From the NCBI RefSeq assembly GCF_900141825.1, contig NZ_FQYQ01000015.1, positions 1-64,000 on the forward strand: DNA of 64,000 nucleotides. Direction: 5' to 3'. Position 1 is the stretch's first letter, and every line of letters begins with the position of its first letter. Under the pieces are notes generated by a model, which saw nothing but the letters and a program-made list of their open reading frames with translations, searched no databases and was not told the DNA's origin. This DNA is from Pseudobutyrivibrio xylanivorans DSM 14809. GTDB lineage: Bacteria > Bacillota > Clostridia > Lachnospirales > Lachnospiraceae. Below are positions 8,334 through 20,638 of the stretch, piece after piece. The position numbers and the translations under genes are program-made.

Positions 8334-9469
8334 GATATCTACTTTTGCTGAAAAGGTTTTTCAGAAAGAAAAGTTACATATTGATGCTTCTTTTGGTGCC
8401 ACTCATGGTATTTCTTCTGAAGACAGTGGGGCATGGACAGAATAGTGTCATGTCCATTGGAGTCTTTATACCAGGAGAAGATGCCAGCTCTCAGGCATTA
8501 AGAGAAAAGCTTGAACATGAAACTGGTGCTATTCAATACTTTTTTTATGATTCTAAAGAAGAGTTGCAAACTGATGTGGCAAATCAGACGCTCACAGAAG
8601 GCTGGCTCGTGCCGGAAGATTTAGATTTAATGGTGCAGCAGCTGGCATCAAATCAATTTCCGTCAGAGCGTGTGCAGGTGATAATACGAGAATCGGGACT
8701 TTCTCACCTGCTTGGAAAAGAGATTATCTGCAGCAGAATCTATCCATCAGTGGCAAAGCAGCTTCTGATTAACTATGTACGTTCTAGCTTTTCGCAAGGA
8801 CAGCTTTCTGCGGATGAGCTAGCAAAATTAGAAAAGAGTTTCGATGCTTATGGTCTTTCTGGCAGCCTTTTTAAAGCAAGCTATATGGATTCTTCTGAGA
8901 TGAATGATACTCCAGTAATCCTAATGCCACTTCGAGGAATTCTTGCTATGTGGCTGATGCTTTGCGGAATAGCTACCTCTATGTACTATCTGGAGGATCA
9001 GGAGAACGGTCTTTTCATCTGGTGGCATACGAAGATTAGATTTTTCAGAGACCTTGGCTATTATGCTGTGGCTTTTTTTGCTCCATCTATTATTACTGTA
9101 ATCAGCCTTATCTATAGTGGTAGCTTTACAACCTTGGCAAAAGAGCTTCCTGCCTTGGTTTTATATGCATTGTCAACTATTTTTTTCTCTATGGCTTTAC
9201 GTCTAATTGGACCTGGCAAGAAGTTTTTAGGAATGTTAACTCCAGTTTTAATTATACTATCTACATTGCTATCGCCAGTGTTTGTAGACCTTAAGCAACT
9301 AAGGCAAATTCAAAAATGCTGCCCGGCATTTCATTACCTGAGCAGCATTCATGATTCGTATTATTTAGTTACCTTACTTATTTATACGATACTCCTTGGG
9401 GGTCTTGTTGTACTTCTCCTTAAATTTTCTATTAAAGTGCGACAGGTTCTCAAAGCCGACCTGCTGTGA
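8330..9469 (+). CDS. ABC-2 type transporter permease (second subunit)
   Basis: A 379-residue protein with an N-terminal helix (SYILMLLLVPLMVFLLKTVG), an extracytoplasmic domain to about residue 195, and five helices, the last being LVTLLIYTILLGGLVVLLL at residues about 345-363. It starts inside the stop of the first permease (ATGA). Its last 96 bases run antisense through the 3' end of the convergent araC gene, so its terminal helix and tail are encoded opposite the regulator's DNA-binding helices. Both frames look genuine: the helix is needed for normal ABC-2 topology, and the AraC C terminus is canonical. No terminator is visible in the overlap. Confidence 0.78.
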   Translation: MRYLLLLKRFFRKKSYILMLLLVPLMVFLLKTVGHGQNSVMSIGVFIPGEDASSQALREKLEHETGAIQYFFYDSKEELQTDVANQTLTEGWLVPEDLDLMVQQLASNQFPSERVQVIIRESGLSHLLGKEIICSRIYPSVAKQLLINYVRSSFSQGQLSADELAKLEKSFDAYGLSGSLFKASYMDSSEMNDTPVILMPLRGILAMWLMLCGIATSMYYLEDQENGLFIWWHTKIRFFRDLGYYAVAFFAPSIITVISLIYSGSFTTLAKELPALVLYALSTIFFSMALRLIGPGKKFLGMLTPVLIILSTLLSPVFVDLKQLRQIQKCCPAFHYLSSIHDSYYLVTLLIYTILLGGLVVLLLKFSIKVRQVLKADLL

Positions 9470-10246
9470 AATATCAAGAATATTATCTTCTGTAGACAGA
9501 AGCAGGCGGGCAGCCATGGATAATCTGTAATCATTTAAATAAGTAATAAAGCTGACACCGAAGGTATCTTTGAAAAATCTCATAAAGTGGGATTCTGAGA
9601 AGCCGGCCCTGTCAGCCATTTCAGCTACAGTCATTTGCTCACTATAGTGAAGCTCTACATATTTAATAACAGGCTTCAGCTTGTCGATTCTGCGGATGCT
9701 TGAGGCATCCCTTTTTTCTTCATATAAAGTAACTAGATCAAAAAGCATTAGATAAAGGTTTCCCTTTATGGCTAAACCCCAGGCGCCCTCACGGTGGCCG
9801 GAAATATTGTCATTGCTATCTAAATACTTTCGTACACTCTCGTAGCCAGGGACTCCCTGCTTAAAAATCTTAGGAACTTGTACTGCATTTTCAAAAAACG
9901 GAAGCAGAAAAGTATCATAGAAGTCATCCATAGAAGAGGAGAAAATCTTTCCATCGAAAAGAATATTCTCATATTCCATGGAATCATCTTTGTTCTGAAA
10001 GATGCCATGAACGATGCCAGGAATAATAAATGCAATATCCCCACTGTTCACTGTATGTTCATCTCCATCGATTACAATAACCCCTGAACCCTTCTTTATA
10101 TAAATGAATTCCACATCCTCGTGCCAGTGAAGTGGCACACTTTCAAAGTCTAGTGGGATGGTACAAGGGTAAGTGTTATACGCTATGTTGTAGTCAAAGT
10201 GACTAACGTTTTCATGTATGGCTTGATACTCGTTTATATTAATCAT
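9374..10246 (-). CDS. AraC-family transcriptional regulator with cupin sensor domain
   Basis: A 290-residue regulator. The N-terminal cupin/AraC-binding domain is at about residues 20-160 (HWHEDVEFIYIKKGSG, GDIAFIIPGIVHGI). The C-terminal double helix-turn-helix is at about 190-290, with MTVAEMADRAGFSESHFMRFFK, then ILDISQQVGFENLSHFNRKFK and the closing YNKTPKEYR. Such proteins usually sense sugars. It is divergent from glycogen phosphorylase, so it may control glgP, or the ABC operon it converges on. No Shine-Dalgarno precedes the ATG. A TTGCGT/TACTAT promoter lies so close that the transcript may start at the ATG itself. Confidence 0.92.
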   Translation of the reverse strand: MININEYQAIHENVSHFDYNIAYNTYPCTIPLDFESVPLHWHEDVEFIYIKKGSGVIVIDGDEHTVNSGDIAFIIPGIVHGIFQNKDDSMEYENILFDGKIFSSSMDDFYDTFLLPFFENAVQVPKIFKQGVPGYESVRKYLDSNDNISGHREGAWGLAIKGNLYLMLFDLVTLYEEKRDASSIRRIDKLKPVIKYVELHYSEQMTVAEMADRAGFSESHFMRFFKDTFGVSFITYLNDYRLSMAARLLLSTEDNILDISQQVGFENLSHFNRKFKEKYNKTPKEYRINK

Positions 10247-10335: not shown

Positions 10336-10475
10336 GAGATGCACTTATAATCTTGGCAAGCGCGAGCAAGGGGGCACCATACAGTACATGGGATGGGGCC
10401 CACGCCGGCGGGGGGACCCATGTGCTGATATGGGGGATGCCTTGCGGGAGCATGTAAAACTAGGAGGTGCATCTC
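10336..10475 (+). ncRNA. Candidate structured RNA element, copy 1 (glgP leader)
   Basis: The element is closed by a perfect 9-bp stem GAGATGCAC (10336-10344) / GTGCATCTC (10467-10475). Inside is the core TCTTGGCAAGCGCGAGCAAG (10351-10370), a long variable hairpin (CCATACAG at 10377-10384 with CTGATATGG at 10425-10433, and ACATGGG 10386-10392 with CCCATGT 10417-10423), then CTTGCGGGAGC (10441-10451), which can pair with GCAAG in the first core. Both core strings recur identically in copy 2 at 19585, while the closing stem and hairpin sequences differ but still pair. It lies in the glgP leader, with AGGAGG at 10462-10467 beside the closing stem. I do not recognise the class; a riboswitch-like control element is inferred. 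Confidence 0.6.
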
Positions 10476-10497: not shown

Positions 10498-12747
10498 ATG
10501 ACAGCAAATGAGTACATCAAGGTAAGATTTGGTCGCCACATGGACCAGTGTACAAATGAGGAGATTTACATCGGTCTTTTGGAGTATGTAAAGGATAAGG
10601 CCAAGGACAGAGAAATTAAGGGCGGAAAGAAGAAGCTCTACTACATCAGTGCAGAGTTCCTTATCGGAAAGCTTCTTTCAAACAACTTAATTAACCTTGG
10701 TCTTTATGATGAGGTTAAGGCAGAGCTTGAAGCTTGCGGAAAGTCACTTGCAGAGATTGAGGAAATCGAGGTTGAGCCTTCACTTGGTAACGGTGGTCTT
10801 GGAAGACTTGCAGCTTGCTTCCTTGATTCAATCGCAACACTTGGTCTTAATGGTGATGGCGTAGGTCTTGCATATCACATGGGCCTTTTCAAGCAGGTGT
10901 TTGAGAACAATCTTCAGAACGAGGTTCCAAACCCATGGATGTCTGAACACAGCTGGATGACAAAGACAGACAAGACATACAAGGTAGATTTCGGCGGATT
11001 CAATGTTCAGTCAAGAATGTACGATATCGACGTAACAGGTTACGATTCAGTATCTACAAAGCTTCACCTTTTCGATGTTGAAACAGTAGATGAGAGCATT
11101 ATTAAGGATGGAATCAACTTCGATAAGGGTGAGTTCACAAAGAACCTTACACTTTTCCTTTATCCAGATGATTCAGATGATAATGGTAGATTACTTCGTG
11201 TATATCAGCAGTATTTCATGGTAAGTAACGCAGCTCAGCTCATCTTAGATGAGGCAGTTGAAAAGGGTTCAAACCTCTACGACCTTGCTGATTACGCAGT
11301 TATTCAGATAAATGATACACATCCATCAATGGTTATCCCTGAGCTTATTCGACTCCTTCAGATTCGTGGGCTTACAATGGACGAGGCTATTGATGTGGTT
11401 TCTAAGTGTACTGCTTATACAAACCACACAATCCTCGCAGAAGCTCTCGAAAAGTGGCCAATCCACTTCATGATGAAGGCTGTTCCACAGCTCATGCCTA
11501 TAATTCGCGAGCTCCACAACAGAATCGCAAAGAAAGTAAGTGACCCAGACGTAGCCATTATCAAGGACGACCTTGTACACATGGCACACATGGATATCCA
11601 CTATGGTATCTCAATCAACGGTGTTGCTGCACTTCACACAGAGATTCTTAAGGAGACAGAGCTTAACAAGTTCTACAAGCTCTACCCAGAGAAGTTCAAC
11701 AACAAGACAAACGGTATCACATTCCGCCGTTGGTTATTATATTGCAACCCAGAGCTTGCAAAGCTTATCGAGGAGCTTATCGGACCAGGCTTCAAGAAGG
11801 ACGCTACAGAGCTTAAGAAGCTTGAGCAGTTTATGAATGATGATGCAGTTGTTCAGAAGTTCCTTGATGTAAAGAACACAAGAAAGACAGTTCTCAAGAA
11901 CTACCTTGCAAAGACACAGGGAATCGAAATCGACGACAACTCTGTTTACGATATTCAGATTAAGAGACTTCATGAGTACAAGCGTCAGCAGATGAATGCA
12001 CTCTACGTAATTAATAAGTACTTTGAGATTAAGGAAGGCAAGAAGCCAGCTCGTCCAATCACTGTAATCTTTGGTGCAAAGGCAGCTCCAGCTTACGTTA
12101 TCGCAAAGGATATCATTCACCTTATCCTCTGCTTACAGGAAATCATCGCAAAGGATCCAGAGGTAAGCCCATACCTTAAGGTTGTTATGGTAGAAAACTA
12201 CAACGTAACACTTGCTGAGAAGCTTATCCCAGCTTGCGATATTCACGAGCAGATTTCACTTGCATCTAAGGAGGCATCTGGTACTTCTAATATGAAGTTC
12301 ATGCTTAACGGTGCAGTTGCTATCGGTACAATGGATGGTGCAAACGTAGAGATGCACGATTTTGTAGGTGATGATAACATCTACATCTTCGGCGAGGATT
12401 CAGACACAGTAATCAAGCGCTATGCAGACGCATCTTATGTATCACGCGACTATTATGAGAAGGATGCTAACCTTAAGAAGTGCGTAGACTTTATCGTATC
12501 TGACAAGCTTATGGAAGTAGGTCAGAAGGAGAACCTTGAGCGTCTTTATAATGAGCTCCTTAACAAGGACTGGTTCATGACATTCCCAGATTTCAAGGAT
12601 TACTGCGAGACAAAAGAAAAGGCTTACAAGGAATTCGAGAACCGCACAGAGTGGGGCCGCAAGATGATTAAGAACATCGCCAACGCAGGATTCTTCTCAA
12701 GCGACCGTACAATTGCTCAGTACAACGAAGATATCTGGAAATTATAA
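10498..12747 (+). CDS. glgP: Glycogen/starch/maltodextrin phosphorylase
   Basis: A 749-residue PLP enzyme of GT35 that releases glucose-1-phosphate from alpha-1,4-glucans in the cytoplasm. It has [20 protein letters not shown] near residue 95 (the standard GT35 block), QINDTHPSM near residue 270 and the PLP-binding Lys600 in [14 protein letters not shown]. It is somewhat shorter than the roughly 800-residue enzymes of enterobacteria, with the N-terminal regulatory region reduced. A strong AAGGAGG site precedes the ATG. Upstream is a structured RNA candidate and the divergent AraC-type sensor. Codon use is strongly biased, which suggests high expression. No other glg genes are adjacent. Confidence 0.95.
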
Positions 12748-12750
12748 ATA

Positions 12751-12833
12751 GCTAGTAGCTATCAAGCTCTGTGTATTGCACAAGGAGCCAATCTCGCGAC
12801 GGTGCAATATCCAGGCTTGAGAGCGTAACTAGC
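12751..12833 (+). ncRNA. Long covarying hairpin element, copy A
   Basis: Beginning 3 bases after the glgP stop are three nested stems: GCTAGT (12751-12756)/ACTAGC (12828-12833); GCTATCAAGC (12758-12767)/GCTTGAGAGC (12815-12824, one mismatch); TATTGCAC (12774-12781)/GTGCAATA (12802-12809). The apical segment holds AAGGAGCC. Copy B at 16716 has the same outer stem and a middle stem changed on both strands, which preserves pairing. It could be a 3'-UTR RNA or a small palindromic mobile repeat. It lies just before the promoter of the next gene. Confidence 0.55.
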
Positions 12834-12909: not shown

Positions 12910-13389
12910 ATGAGCACAGGAATTATCGTTTTGCTTGTAATCCTGGTAGTAATGATTGCAGCATTGGTTGCTCTTTACTTCATGGGTAAGAAGGCACAGA
13001 CACGTCAGGAAGAGCAGAGAGCTCAGATGGAAGCTGTAGCACAGCAGGTGTCTATGCTTATCATTGATAAGAAGCGCTTAAAAATGAAGGATTCAGGTCT
13101 CCCAGAGGCAGTTATCTCAGCTACACCATGGTATGCTAAGAATTCTAAGATACCAGTTGTTAAGGCTAAGGTTGGCCCACAGATGATGACACTCATCTGC
13201 GATGCAGAGATTTTCGACGAGATGCCAATTAAGAAGGAAGTAAAGGCTACAGTTTCTGGTCTTTACATCACAAAGGTTCGTGGTCTTCGAGGTGGAAACG
13301 CACCAGTTGATACTAAGAAGAAAAAGGGCCTCAGAGCATGGGCATTAAACAAGCGCAAAGAGCTTGAAGCTGAAAGCAAAAAGAAGTAA
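12910..13389 (+). CDS. Conserved small membrane-anchored protein of unknown function
   Basis: 159 residues. One N-terminal transmembrane helix (IIVLLVILVVMIAALVALYFMG, residues 5-26) is followed by a basic coiled stretch (KKAQTRQEEQRAQMEAVAQQV) and a soluble domain of about 85 residues (PWYAKNSKIPVVKAKVGPQMMTL, then TVSGLYITKVRGLRGG), ending in a lysine-rich tail. Topology suggests a cytoplasmic body tethered to the membrane. I do not recognise a named domain; proteins of this shape are common in Lachnospiraceae. It has its own promoter and a terminator, so it is monocistronic. Confidence 0.75.
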   Translation: MSTGIIVLLVILVVMIAALVALYFMGKKAQTRQEEQRAQMEAVAQQVSMLIIDKKRLKMKDSGLPEAVISATPWYAKNSKIPVVKAKVGPQMMTLICDAEIFDEMPIKKEVKATVSGLYITKVRGLRGGNAPVDTKKKKGLRAWALNKRKELEAESKKK

Positions 13390-16809: not shown

Positions 16810-18777
16810 ATGACTTTTAGTTTAGGCATTACATTTGTCTTCCTGCTTTACTGCATCTTCTGGATAGAGATTCCGGGAATGCTGTTTTCTACCATGCTTT
16901 TGCAGCGAAGATTCAAATTTTCTACAAGATTACTGGCTGGATTTTTTATCGGCTTCACATATATGGCGGCCCTGTATTTGATAGAGTCGCTGACGGGCAT
17001 TAATGGCATTATTATGTCTGCCGGCCCTGTTACTTCAGCTATTGGTATTTTTTGTTATTTCAAAAATGACAGACCTTCGATTTATAATGCGTCGGAGCAT
17101 TTTAGATGGACTTATGTGATTATCTTCGGATTTATTTATCTGGTTTCCATGCTGAATTTCCAGTTTAAATACCTGTTTGCTCTTTCTGGAGCATCCACTC
17201 AGGTCTATCATGATGTGCTGTTTCACACAGGAAACATAGTGTCTCTTAGCCACTCGTTCCCAAATACTGATATTAGAATTGAAGGACTTACATTCTATTA
17301 TCACTATTTCTATGAGCTGATTTTTGCTATGAGTAAGCACATTTTCAGAATTGATGCTTTCAGACTTTATCTCAACGGAAATGCTATAATTTGTGCCTTT
17401 CCACTGACTATGGCAATGGTTACTCTTGGAGAACGAATCCGAGGGGTAAAAGAGGTGACACCTCTAAGATATTTCTTTTACTGTTCAGGGCTCCTTGCTT
17501 CAGGAATTGCCATGCTTCCACTTGTGGTTGTAGGCGGAAGATTGCCGGTATCATGGCTTGGTAATCATATTTTCAGCAATATTAATGCCATGGGATTGGC
17601 ACTGTCATTGACCATGCTTGTAATTGATGTACTGGCGGAGATTTGGTACGATAAGCTGGTTTTCAAAAATCTTATTTTGTTGTTTATTCTTTCTGTTGCA
17701 GCCACAGGTTTTAAGGGTACTACAGCTACCATGCTGGTAGGTATTACCTGGGCAGTTTTTGTTATAGAATGGATTATTACCAAGAATTTTCACCTGCAAA
17801 AGCTTTTATATAATGTAGCTTTAACTTTGGGATTTATCCTGACATACATCACTGTTACTGTTGGATTGAATCCATCAGGAGCCAACAACCGAGCAATGGT
17901 TGTTACGGCAGAAGGAACACTTGAGGCAGGTCGTGTAGGTCAGCTCTTCACTAAGCTTGGTCTAGATTATATGGCATTCCCTTGGGTTGTTATCGCAGTG
18001 ATTTTATCAATCATTTGCATCTTAGGTCCATGCGTGATTACATTTGTGGCCTTTACTGTAGAGAAATTTACTACCCTCATTAAAGAGGGGGTTATTGGGG
18101 ATATTTTCGATTGGTTTGCCATCGGTATGGTTCTGATGGGCGTTATCGGCTTTTCTGCTGTAAGTGTACCTGGTCTTTCACAGGGCTATTTTGTTCTTAC
18201 CAGTGCAGGATTATTGTTCTATTGCTCAGTGAGATACATGATTGGTCACCGCATGGATTTCTTCTATAAGGTGATGCACTTCTGGTTTGCAGTAGGAACT
18301 GTGCTTCTTGCGGTGGATGTGGTATATTTCTGCTACGCAGATGTTAAGCAGAATGCTGTTTATAAGCAGGAAGCTGGAGATAGGGCGGATATGGTTTCTG
18401 CAGAGACTATGGAGGCTTATCTTTGGATTAGAGATAACACTCCAGAGGATTCTGTTATTGCTGTTGACAGATTATCTGAAAAGCAGGAGAACGATTACAG
18501 AAGCATCTACTTCTATGCCAGTGCTTTTGCTGAGCGCCAGTGCTATCTGGAGGGCTATGATTATTCTGATGTAGCTGCAGATCAGGTAGAGGCGAAGCTT
18601 TCCATGAATGAGAAGTTTTACAGCGAGGATTTCTATGAGGCTGATGCGGCTCTCGAAGTAGCAGGAGTGGATTATCTTGTGGTTACAAAGCAGGAACATC
18701 CTGATTATAAAGCAGCTAGTAGTAATCTTAAATTAGTATTTAATAATTCAGAGGTAATGATTTACAAGTATGATTAA
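16810..18777 (+). CDS. Large polytopic membrane protein, GT-C glycosyltransferase-like
   Basis: 655 residues with about 12-13 transmembrane helices in residues 1-515 and a C-terminal extracytoplasmic domain (about 525-655). The long first loop contains STQVYHDVLFHTGNIVSLSH and TFYYHYFYELIF, an acidic/His pattern like the catalytic loop of GT-C enzymes. The tail begins YLWIRDNTPEDSVIAVDR, a segment typical of the soluble domain of membrane GT-C proteins. It would transfer a sugar from a polyprenyl-phosphate donor on the outer face, for example as a side branch. It overlaps wzm by 8 bases, tying it to ABC-dependent glycan export. No named family could be fixed by eye. Confidence 0.65.
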   Translation: MTFSLGITFVFLLYCIFWIEIPGMLFSTMLLQRRFKFSTRLLAGFFIGFTYMAALYLIESLTGINGIIMSAGPVTSAIGIFCYFKNDRPSIYNASEHFRWTYVIIFGFIYLVSMLNFQFKYLFALSGASTQVYHDVLFHTGNIVSLSHSFPNTDIRIEGLTFYYHYFYELIFAMSKHIFRIDAFRLYLNGNAIICAFPLTMAMVTLGERIRGVKEVTPLRYFFYCSGLLASGIAMLPLVVVGGRLPVSWLGNHIFSNINAMGLALSLTMLVIDVLAEIWYDKLVFKNLILLFILSVAATGFKGTTATMLVGITWAVFVIEWIITKNFHLQKLLYNVALTLGFILTYITVTVGLNPSGANNRAMVVTAEGTLEAGRVGQLFTKLGLDYMAFPWVVIAVILSIICILGPCVITFVAFTVEKFTTLIKEGVIGDIFDWFAIGMVLMGVIGFSAVSVPGLSQGYFVLTSAGLLFYCSVRYMIGHRMDFFYKVMHFWFAVGTVLLAVDVVYFCYADVKQNAVYKQEAGDRADMVSAETMEAYLWIRDNTPEDSVIAVDRLSEKQENDYRSIYFYASAFAERQCYLEGYDYSDVAADQVEAKLSMNEKFYSEDFYEADAALEVAGVDYLVVTKQEHPDYKAASSNLKLVFNNSEVMIYKYD

Positions 18778-19585
18778 AGACATTATCACAAACAGAAAAT
18801 TAATAACAAAGCTTGCAAAGAACGATTTTAAGCAGAAGTTTGCAGGATCTACTCTTGGAGTAATCTGGGCTTTTGTACAGCCGGTTATCACAGTCCTGGT
18901 TTACTGGATAGTGTTTGATAAGGCACTGAGCCAGGGCACTCAGGGTACAAAGGGAGGCATTGACGCGCCATTTGTACTTTGGCTCTCAGCCGGTATAGTA
19001 TCATGGTTCTATTTCAGCGAGGTGCTTTCAGCTGGAACGGTGGTGCTTCACGAATACAATTATCTTGTGAAAAAGGTTGTATTTCCAATTAATGTGTTGC
19101 CTATCGTAAAGGCTGTTTCATCCCTGATTGTCCACGGCTTTTTCGTTGTATTCACATTGCTGGTAGCATTTCTTTATGGATTTGGATTTACACCATATAT
19201 CTTCCAGTGTATTTATTATTCCTTCGCCATGATGGTGCTTGTTATTGGTTTGATTTATCTTACCAGTGCGCTTTGTGTATTCTTTAAGGACATGGCACAG
19301 CTCATAAATATCTTCCTACAGGTAGGTATCTGGGCTACACCAATCATGTGGAACTTTGATTATATGGTGCAGAAGGGTTCGATTCCTCTTTGGCTCAACT
19401 ATGTGCTTAAGCTGAACCCAATGTTCTACATCACAAGCGGATATCGCGACAGCATTATTGGACAGACTGGATTTTGGACAAGACCAGTAATGACAGCATA
19501 TTTTTGGGTGGTTACGCTCATCGTATTTATATTAGGCACACATGTATTCAAGAAATTACAGTCCCAATTTGCGGATGTTTTATAA
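18770..19585 (+). CDS. wzm: Polysaccharide ABC exporter permease (Wzm/RgpC/TagG-like)
   Basis: A 271-residue ABC-2 permease with six helices. It has the family signature near the N terminus, NDFKQKFAGSTLGVIWAFVQPVITVLVYWIVF (residues about 17-48). LSAGIVSWFYFSE and LKLNPMFYITSGYRDSIIG are also characteristic of polysaccharide/polyol-phosphate exporters. It starts inside the end of the GT-C-like gene. Its ATPase partner is at 20818, separated by a structured RNA-like element and a GDPD gene, which is an unusual split. The exported glycan is likely a teichoic-acid-like or rhamnan-type polymer judged by neighbouring RgpF and GT2 modules. Confidence 0.9.
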   Translation: MIKDIITNRKLITKLAKNDFKQKFAGSTLGVIWAFVQPVITVLVYWIVFDKALSQGTQGTKGGIDAPFVLWLSAGIVSWFYFSEVLSAGTVVLHEYNYLVKKVVFPINVLPIVKAVSSLIVHGFFVVFTLLVAFLYGFGFTPYIFQCIYYSFAMMVLVIGLIYLTSALCVFFKDMAQLINIFLQVGIWATPIMWNFDYMVQKGSIPLWLNYVLKLNPMFYITSGYRDSIIGQTGFWTRPVMTAYFWVVTLIVFILGTHVFKKLQSQFADVL

Positions 19586-19705
19586 TGCGGCTAGTAGTCT
19601 TGGCAAGCGCGAGCAAGAGGGCCCCGCTCAGGTTCTTTGACATCTAGTCAAAGGTTCTGAGATGGGAGATGGCTTGCGGGAGCTTGGAAAAATTGGAGGC
19701 CGCAT
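19585..19705 (+). ncRNA. Candidate structured RNA element, copy 2
   Basis: Starts at the last base of the wzm stop. Closing stem ATGCGGC (19585-19591)/GCCGCAT (19699-19705) is different in sequence from copy 1 but perfectly paired. The 20-base core at 19598-19617 and CTTGCGGGAGC at 19673-19683 are identical to copy 1. GCAAGC in the first core can pair with GCTTGC at 19672-19677. The variable arm is CTCAG/CTGAG plus CTTTGAC/GTCAAAG. An intrinsic terminator follows 15 bases later, so this copy looks like an independent small RNA or a 3'-UTR-derived RNA. The class is not recognised. Confidence 0.6.
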
Positions 19706-19752: not shown

Positions 19753-19822
19753 GTGCTCATATTTGAGTTGAATTTGCCCCGATATGATAAAATATAACTA
19801 GCTAGAGAAGGGGGGCTTGCGT

Positions 19823-20638
19823 ATGAGGGGTAAGTTATTTTCTAGAGTAGGTAGAACCGTAGCTATCAGCATGGTCGCCTTGCTTTGTTCTTTTGCATTC
19901 TGCAATGAATTCAATTATTTACCAGCTGATGCTGATGAAGATATTGTAGTTCAGGTGGTGGCTCACAGAGGATACTCGGGAGCCTATCCGGAGAATACCC
20001 TTAGTGCTTTTGCGGGGGCTTATGCACACGGGGCAAAGACGGTAGAATTTGATGTTAGAAAGACAAAAGACGGAGAACTTGTAATCTACCATGATGATAC
20101 ATTAGAGAAGGTTGACGGAGGAGAAACAACAATTGCAGACCATACCTATGAAGAGCTTTTAGAGCTTGACGCAGGTGCATGGTATGACAAGGAATATGCT
20201 AAGGAGCGTATTCCTACACTGGATCAGGTTTTAAGCCTGTTACAGTCTACAAATATGCGTATATTCTGCGAATTAAAGGATATCGGAGAAGATCCAGCAT
20301 TTGCAGGTCAGGTATATGAGAAAGTTCAGCAACACGGACTTTTGGACAAGGTAGTATTTTTATCATTTAATTATGACTATCTGTCAGGAATTAAGGAGAT
20401 TAATCCAAATCAGCCAATCATGAAGCTGGCATCATTTGGAAAATCTACACTTCCTACCAAATACCCAGCTGAGTACTATGGAATTAATATGAAGACTCTT
20501 ACACCTAGAACAGTAAGAGCCATTCATGAGGCGGGGGGTAAGGTTTATTCTTATGCACCAGAGACAAAGGGACAGATGTTATCCCTTCAACGTCTTGGTG
20601 TGGACGGCGTAATCACTGATTATCTGGAAATCAACTAA
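19823..20638 (+). CDS. Secreted glycerophosphodiester phosphodiesterase (GDPD)
   Basis: 271 residues from ATG 19823, which lies 7 bases after GAAGGGGGG; the TTG at 19817 is less well placed. An N-terminal hydrophobic segment (VAISMVALLCSFAFC) looks like a signal peptide or anchor. The catalytic core has VVAHRGYSGAYPENTLSAF (His and Arg-Gly), VEFDVRKTKDGELVIYHDD (Glu/Asp metal ligands and the second His) and CELKDIGED. The ending GVDGVITDYLE is the usual last strand. It would release glycerol-3-phosphate from phosphodiesters outside the cell, for instance from glycerophosphate-modified glycans or lipoteichoic acid. It sits between wzm and wzt. Confidence 0.92.
   Translation: MRGKLFSRVGRTVAISMVALLCSFAFCNEFNYLPADADEDIVVQVVAHRGYSGAYPENTLSAFAGAYAHGAKTVEFDVRKTKDGELVIYHDDTLEKVDGGETTIADHTYEELLELDAGAWYDKEYAKERIPTLDQVLSLLQSTNMRIFCELKDIGEDPAFAGQVYEKVQQHGLLDKVVFLSFNYDYLSGIKEINPNQPIMKLASFGKSTLPTKYPAEYYGINMKTLTPRTVRAIHEAGGKVYSYAPETKGQMLSLQRLGVDGVITDYLEIN

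What the first reader, a model, noticed from the sequence alone, without database searches (positions are those of the whole stretch)
10336..10475. Unrecognised structured RNA class in two copies (10336-10475 and 19585-19705)
Seen directly: a 20-base core and an 11-base core (CTTGCGGGAGC) are identical in both copies. The outer closing stem is GAGATGCAC/GTGCATCTC in one and ATGCGGC/GCCGCAT in the other. A long internal arm is unrelated in sequence but perfectly paired in both. Conserved unpaired cores inside covarying helices are the hallmark of a functional RNA. One copy is in the glgP leader; the other follows the wzm stop and has its own terminator. No riboswitch, ribozyme or small RNA consensus I know matches.
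Basis: partly seen in the sequence, partly recalled or inferred. Interest (0 to 1): 0.85.

Follow-up and report, generated by a model that had tools for sequence, protein, structure and literature searches.

The report
Mobile structured RNA caps on hairpins
Two look-alike folded RNA stretches in a rumen bacterium belong to a family of small repeated elements that sit on top of ordinary RNA hairpins, swap their inner domains between genomic sites, and match no entry in the Rfam catalogue of RNA families.

Summary
In detail: both copies exist, share the cores claimed, and fold far better than shuffled sequence. They are not a two-copy class. The own genome has at least 15 copies; 25 of 29 genomes of the genus (Pseudobutyrivibrio) match a strict pattern, 0 of 32 of other genera. 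One other Lachnospiraceae bin has 14 weaker model matches. No Rfam family matches.

Core pairs covary (9 of 15; 0 of 500 shuffles). The outer stem is private to each site: 105 of 128 copies reach 7 bp, against 14% of mismatched flanks. Near-identical cores sit on unrelated stems. At 4 of 26 shared sites the stem stays while the inner arm is another subfamily.

A second family, F2, shares these slots, lies in the window behind glgP (12755-12829), and nests with F1.

Best reading: a dispersed mobile element, BOX/MITE-like in behaviour, that is also a conserved RNA domain capping hairpins, mostly in sense. Probably not a riboswitch. What moves it is unknown; expression was not tested.

The parts
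10336..10475 (+). F1 copy 1, complete with outer stem, in the intergenic stretch between the divergent AraC-type gene and the glgP Shine-Dalgarno
   Evidence: the promoter scan found no plus-strand promoter-like site there
10336..10344 (+). outer (site-private) stem, 5' strand GAGATGCAC
10358..10451 (+). F1 core plus internal arm (AAGCGCGAGCAAG...CTTGCGGGAGC)
10467..10475 (+). outer stem, 3' strand GTGCATCTC
19585..19705 (+). F1 copy 2; its first base is the last base of the stop codon of the upstream ABC-2 transporter gene
19605..19683 (+). F1 core plus internal arm of copy 2; same arm as own-genome copies L004 (identical) and L008 (one difference)
12751..12833 (+). F2: second, different structured element just after the glgP stop; core 12755-12829 with a GCTA/TAGC outer stem
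   Evidence: z -5.04
10498..12747 (+). glycogen/carbohydrate phosphorylase gene, F1 in front and F2 behind
   Evidence: PF00343, E 2.3e-259
18770..19585 (+).
   Evidence: PF01061
19726..19752 (+). terminator-like hairpin with T run, also present in relatives without the element, so not part of it
   Evidence: read by eye, the consensus scan does not list it

Best explanation
F1 is a short, non-coding, dispersed element of Pseudobutyrivibrio (core plus arm 78-167 nt, with linkers and stem about 120-215) whose transcript would fold into a conserved RNA domain. It sits as an apical cap on hairpins whose stems belong to the genomic site: leader hairpins before Shine-Dalgarno sequences, hairpins after stop codons, and a few terminators. 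Shown: copy number, covariation of the core, site-private stems, near-identical cores on unrelated stems, shared sites with and without the cap, replacement of the inner arm by another subfamily at otherwise conserved sites, nesting with a second family (F2), and sense bias. Inferred: it spreads as a non-autonomous mobile element using an agent supplied in trans, preferring hairpin (palindrome) centres, and its inner domain is exchanged between copies by recombination or gene conversion through the conserved cores. Also inferred: in the mRNA it is an independently folding cap that lets the host hairpin keep working (termination, 3'-end or 5'-end protection), so insertions at hairpin tips are tolerated or mildly useful. 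It is not a metabolite sensor tied to one pathway.
For: Copies: 15 pattern hits in own genome, 14 with both cores, one more by model; 25 of 29 genus genomes, 0 of 32 of other genera, reversed-pattern control 0. Core covariation. Outer stems: 105 of 128 copies at 7 bp or more against 14.2% of mismatched flank pairs, commonest register 13/14 nt. Mobility or homogenisation: 103 near-identical pairs at different sites, 0 of them with outer identity of 0.8 or more; in the own genome L002, L004 and L008 share a 79-nt core plus arm (at most one difference) on three different stems. Arm changes at fixed sites: of 82 within-site pairs, 34 have flanks at least 75% identical; arms are at least 85% identical in 19, under 65% in 9. 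Of these 9, 7 (4 sites) are arm replacements and 2 are an extra module inserted in the same arm. Presence and absence: copy-2 site lacks F1 in G005, G009, G026, G010; serS 3' site in 26 other genomes: F1 in 5, F2-type in 10, F1 nested in F2-type in 4, plain hairpin in 3, other or fragment in 3, unresolved 1 (sorted by eye). Other genome: the domain lies inside 12-bp inverted repeats with private palindromes outside (12, 9, 16, 7, 8, 6 bp; mismatched mean 4.9, max 9). Orientation: of 128, both neighbours sense 70, both antisense 20, convergent 11, divergent 8, unclassified 19; 70 of 90 gives p 1.1e-7, copies not independent.
Against: No transposase or recombinase was identified; the one family tried (PF01797) is absent from the own genome. 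No clean target duplication. Several empty sites (L004 site in G005 and G009; glgP leader in G009, G016, G020 and others) show no hairpin, so insertion into a pre-existing hairpin is not shown there; G014 keeps an F1 3' relic at the L004 site, so some empties may be losses. 23 of 128 copies have no 7-bp stem in the tested register, and flanks 35 nt further out also pair slightly above mismatched flanks (mean 5.5 against 5.0; real 8.9). Only 6 of the 105 stems end in a TTTT run, so capped terminators are a minority. 20 copies are antisense to both neighbours. In the other genome only 2 of 6 palindromes exceed the largest mismatched value. No expression or function data.
Confidence: 0.6

Rival explanations
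1. A classical MITE/BOX-like parasite moved by a chromosomal transposase, with no role for the RNA; the fold is a by-product of inverted repeats in the DNA.
For: Intergenic, multi-copy, mutual nesting; in the G448 genome the domain lies between conserved 12-bp inverted repeats in 6 copies. Pneumococcal BOX elements are modular, folded and insert into one another (PMC3049150, passages).
Against: Unpaired core nucleotides are near-invariant and core pairs covary; sense bias; in Pseudobutyrivibrio the terminal repeat is not shared between copies.
Confidence: 0.2
2. An old cis-acting regulatory RNA (riboswitch or protein-binding leader) kept at fixed sites, homogenised only by gene conversion.
For: 26 sites are shared by two or more copies, with compensatory stem changes (55 both-side, 3 one-side, 12 disrupting, 200 unchanged positions; registers were chosen to maximise pairing, so biased); median 49.5 nt from core end to next ORF in the 70 sense/sense cases.
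Against: Neighbouring genes of the 14 own copies look unrelated from their translated ends (only the window's were checked with Pfam), some copies lie at convergent ends, and orthologous leaders in close relatives carry F2, another repeat, or nothing.
Confidence: 0.12
3. The flanking palindrome is made by the insertion process itself (template switching or hairpin copying) rather than chosen.
For: Empty sites without a hairpin at the L004 site and the glgP leader; a stem at the expected position in 105 of 128 copies.
Against: Plain hairpins without F1 at the serS site in G005, G009 and G010 and a small hairpin at the copy-2 site in G005; the F1 3' relic in G014 suggests some empties are losses.
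Confidence: 0.15

Closest known systems
BOX elements of Streptococcus pneumoniae (PMC3049150; passages read)
   Same: short, intergenic, modular, predicted RNA fold, some shown to be expressed, insert into one another
   Different: BOX has terminal inverted repeats and target duplications (as the passages state) and a variable number of boxB modules; F1 has a site-private outer stem, a replaceable inner arm, and nested modules
REP/BIME and ERIC-type repeats (definition of REP from PMC12306157, passages; ERIC recalled)
   Same: extragenic, palindromic, multi-copy
   Different: REP are defined there as e.g. 14-40 nt with a common motif; here the shared part is the apical domain and the palindrome is not shared; no Y1-type (PF01797) gene in the own genome
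IS elements that target REP sequences and group IIC introns (PMC1525189, PMC7923331: search listing and start of abstract only; insertion at terminator hairpins recalled)
   Same: association with hairpins as landing sites
   Different: no enzyme gene or long ribozyme; unit about 120-215 bp
Rfam structured RNA families
   Same: conserved unpaired core inside covarying helices
   Different: no match at gathering score for F1 in the window, nor for F2 and F3 in nine fetched loci, which gave one tRNA only

Membership tests
Any Rfam 15 family | score at or above the curated threshold | tested here: not met
   whole window 0 matches; F1 regions at E up to 10 only far sub-threshold, F2 region none
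MITE | many short non-coding copies per genome | tested here: met
MITE | conserved terminal inverted repeats | tested here: not met
   in Pseudobutyrivibrio outer stems differ between sites; present in 6 copies of the G448 genome as ATTAAGTTAAGC/GCTTAACTTAAT
MITE | target-site duplication at insertion | tested here: inconclusive
   six sites compared with relatives; flanks too diverged to define one
MITE | cognate transposase in genome | not tested
   only PF01797 was looked for, absent from the own genome
Riboswitch | consistent association with genes of one pathway | tested here: not met
   14 own copies beside genes that look unrelated by their translated ends
Riboswitch | ligand-dependent expression switch | not testable with these tools
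   needs in-line probing or a reporter
REP sequence | short shared palindrome of about 14-40 nt | tested here: not met
   core plus arm 79-98 nt in 121 of 128 copies, range 78-167; palindromic stem private to the site
BOX element | boxA/boxB/boxC sequence modules | not tested
   no BOX model was run; similarity is of behaviour only

The most novel reading that the evidence does not exclude
A genus-wide system of interchangeable RNA domains: several unrelated structured cassettes (F1, F2, a probable F3) insert at, and are exchanged between, the tips of host hairpins, building nested mRNA structures by accretion. This would need a hairpin-recognising mobilisation or exchange machinery that I know of for no element of this size.
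Probability: 0.3. Interest if true: 0.85.

Novelty: new variant of a known kind. Interest (0 to 1): 0.62.

Why it matters
It would show that structured RNA domains can behave as mobile, swappable caps on ordinary hairpins, giving bacteria a way to build complex untranslated regions by nesting. It is also a rich natural experiment: one intergenic site, read in 25 other species, holds a plain hairpin, F1, F2-type, or F1 inside F2-type, so the effect of each cap on termination and mRNA stability can be tested directly.

Tried and rejected
Riboswitch tied to glycogen metabolism: rejected because neighbours of the 14 own copies look unrelated. Phage or plasmid origin: copy 1 has no BLAST match in the phage or plasmid collections; the strict pattern has 0 hits in viral contigs; a looser pattern gave 6 stretches, none recognised by the model at E up to 0.01, G+C-rich and by eye probably coding chance matches. 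Loci L116 and L177 (coding-like matches), L095 and L190 (other genera) were dropped from the 128-copy counts. An autonomous version with an inserted gene: among 130 5' cores and 140 3' cores in held loci, 4 and 8 lacked a partner within 400 bases by the patterns used; by eye these are a locus end, deletions, relics or sequence variants, with L094 unexplained. Only sequence within 400 bases and in held loci was looked at. Y1 transposase PF01797: none in own genome, found in 5 of 14 control genomes. Copy 2 having its own terminator: rejected. Two of nine low-identity arm pairs first counted as swaps are module insertions. Literature: searches in the open-licence PMC library listed no paper whose title or abstract start reports these repeats; the listings are capped at 8 to 20 rows, subscription papers are not held, and supplements were not readable.

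Full report
Observation. Each folds about 5.8 standard deviations below dinucleotide shuffles. The core is found twice in the window and not expected by chance. Pfam names the neighbours: 10498-12747 carbohydrate phosphorylase, 18770-19585 ABC-2 transporter membrane protein, 9374-10246 (minus strand) AraC-type regulator, 19817-20638 GDPD-family phosphodiesterase; 12910-13389 has no match.

How many and where. In the own genome a 19-base core pattern with up to 3 mismatches gives 15 hits. Fourteen have the 3' core too and one was dropped; the covariance model adds a copy at C16:28118. A strict two-core pattern hits 25 of 29 genomes of the genus, own included, and 0 of 32 genomes of other genera; the reversed control gives 0. 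With model R1, 3 of 397 Lachnospiraceae genomes match: two of this genus and one weak hit (29.6 bits) in another; the filters used there lose weak matches. The genome of L095 (G448) has 14 matches at E up to 0.01, best 54.8 bits, four under 30 bits.

RNA-level conservation. On 115 model-aligned copies, 94.9% of cells pair and 9 of 15 pairs show both-side changes; 0 of 500 shuffles reach either value, and 1 of 500 reaches the number of further pair types. Sliding the partner by 1-3 columns drops pairing to 29-47%. The alignment was fitted to the structure, which favours it. The clearest change is GCAAG/CTTGC against GCAGG/CCTGC (64 GC, 48 AU, 1 unpaired). Two pairs are weak: 28 and 40 of the cells there are unpaired.

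The outer stem. In 128 distinct copies (L095, L116, L177, L190 excluded) a perfect helix (G-U allowed) of 7 bp or more lies 6-20 nt from the cores in 105, against 14.2% when flanks of different copies are paired; mean 8.9 bp against 5.0, and 5.5 for true flanks 35 nt further out. Six of the 105 end in a TTTT run; 25 have RTGAG before and GGAYT or CGGAY after. Stems of different sites are unrelated even when core and arm are almost identical: 103 such pairs, mean outer identity 0.49, none at 0.8 or more, against 0.50 for other different-site pairs and 0.75 for same-site pairs.

Shared sites. Twenty-six groups of copies share flanking sequence at a similar distance. Of 82 within-group pairs, 34 keep stem and linkers at 75% identity or more; arms are at least 85% identical in 19, under 65% in 9, between in 6. 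Read out in full, 7 of the 9, at 4 sites, are arm replacements (L108 and L150 against L110 and L103/L143 at one site; L180/L184; L138/L291; L181 and L183 against L174), and 2 (L089/L281, L092/L106) are one extra module put into the same arm. Among same-register stems, positions changed on both sides number 55, one side 3, disrupting 12, unchanged 200; registers were chosen to maximise pairing and species are related, so this is suggestive only.

Empty and alternative sites (all sorted by eye). Copy 2: G005, G009, G026 and G010 have no F1; G005 has a small hairpin GCCAGTAACTGGC, and G005 and G009 keep the terminator-like hairpin. L008 site: G005 keeps stem and linkers but lacks the apical domain; G003 and G010 hold F2; G009 and G026 lack an element; G020 has an unclear remnant. 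L005 site: G005 and G009 hold F2; G026, G014, G010 and G003 a third type, F3; G020 part of F2. L004 site: G005 and G009 have no hairpin, G014 a 3' relic of F1, G010 F2 in the other orientation, G003 F2-type sequence in both orientations. serS 3' site, 26 other genomes fetched, one unresolved (G019): F1 in G002, G011, G017, G020, G022; F2-type in G001, G003, G006, G012, G013, G014, G024, G026, G027, G028; F1 nested in F2-type in G008, G015, G016, G023; plain hairpin in G005, G009, G010; other or fragment in G004, G007, G025. Eight of these also carry an F1 on the other strand in the same gap. glgP leader (copy 1), 27 other genomes: F1 in G002, G006, G008, G014, G018; a 3' half in G003; F2 in G010, G013, G017; another repeat, whole or part, in G005, G015, G019, G022, G023, G025, G026; no element recognised in G007, G009, G011, G016, G020, G024, G027; unclear in G004, G012, G021, G028. 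F1 stems at this leader resemble each other in part (CTGAAATG, CTGAGATT, GAGATGCA); one old insertion or several is not settled.

F2. A second family, GTAGCTATCAANCTCT...GGCTTGAGAGCGTAAC, has 16 exact 5'-motif hits in the own genome, and the motif is in 24 of 29 genus genomes. One copy is in this window at 12755-12829, directly after glgP (fold z -5.04), with no Rfam match at E up to 10. F1 inside F2-type stems and F2 inside the outer part of F1 both occur and fold as nested hairpins in the cases folded. For 32 F2 copies the adjacent stem averages 5.2 bp against 2.7 for mismatched flanks, though only 8 of 32 reach 5 bp against 6%.

Relatives in another genome. In 6 copies of G448 the domain lies between ATTAAGTTAAGC and GCTTAACTTAAT, and outside these the flanks pair again, site-specifically: 12, 9, 16, 7, 8, 6 bp against a mismatched mean of 4.9 and maximum of 9. 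Only two exceed that maximum; L332 with 16 bp is the clearest. This supports landing in palindrome centres, on few cases.

Orientation. Of 128 copies, 70 lie between two genes both in sense, 20 both antisense, 11 convergent, 8 divergent, 10 at an edge, 8 far from ORFs, 1 inside an ORF of 120 aa or more. 70 of 90 gives p 1.1e-7, but copies are not independent and genes were called by ORF length only.

Mechanism and standing. Shown: a conserved fold, high copy number, private stems, arm replacement at some shared sites, nesting, and presence or absence among relatives. Inferred: movement in trans, preference for hairpins, exchange through the cores, and a passive or stabilising cap role in mRNA. 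Behaviour is closest to pneumococcal BOX elements (PMC3049150, passages read). Membership in MITE or BOX families is not claimed: shared terminal repeats are absent in this genus and no mover was found (one search tested one family only).

Noticed in passing
window 12751-12833: Second structured repeat family (F2) right behind glgP; its 5' motif is in 24 of 29 genus genomes.
   Followed up: partly
L212-L215 (leader site of L005): A third structured type (F3, GGCGAAAGC...GAGCGAAAGCGTGTCTCTGG...) occupies the same leader in G026, G014, G010 and G003.
   Followed up: no
L019, L030, L038, L044, L103, L108 and others: A frame ATGAG[stem]...[stem]CGGAYTA outside the outer stem recurs: 25 of 105 stem-bearing F1 copies have loose versions of both parts; it also frames F2 copies (7 of 32) and F3 copies, often just before a Shine-Dalgarno.
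   Followed up: partly
L299, L306, L308, L309, L311, L312, L321 (glgP leaders): An unrelated palindromic repeat CCTCATC(C/A)GTCA...TGACTGATGAGG, whole or in part, sits in the same leader in several species.
   Followed up: no
L006, L043, L110 (F1) and L229 (F2-type): A side hairpin module CTAGTAAGCG(A/G)AGCTTACAT is found both in F1 and in an F2-type element, suggesting module exchange between families.
   Followed up: no
L328-L342 (G448): In another Lachnospiraceae bin the F1 domain is carried, in 6 copies, between 12-bp inverted repeats ATTAAGTTAAGC/GCTTAACTTAAT.
   Followed up: partly
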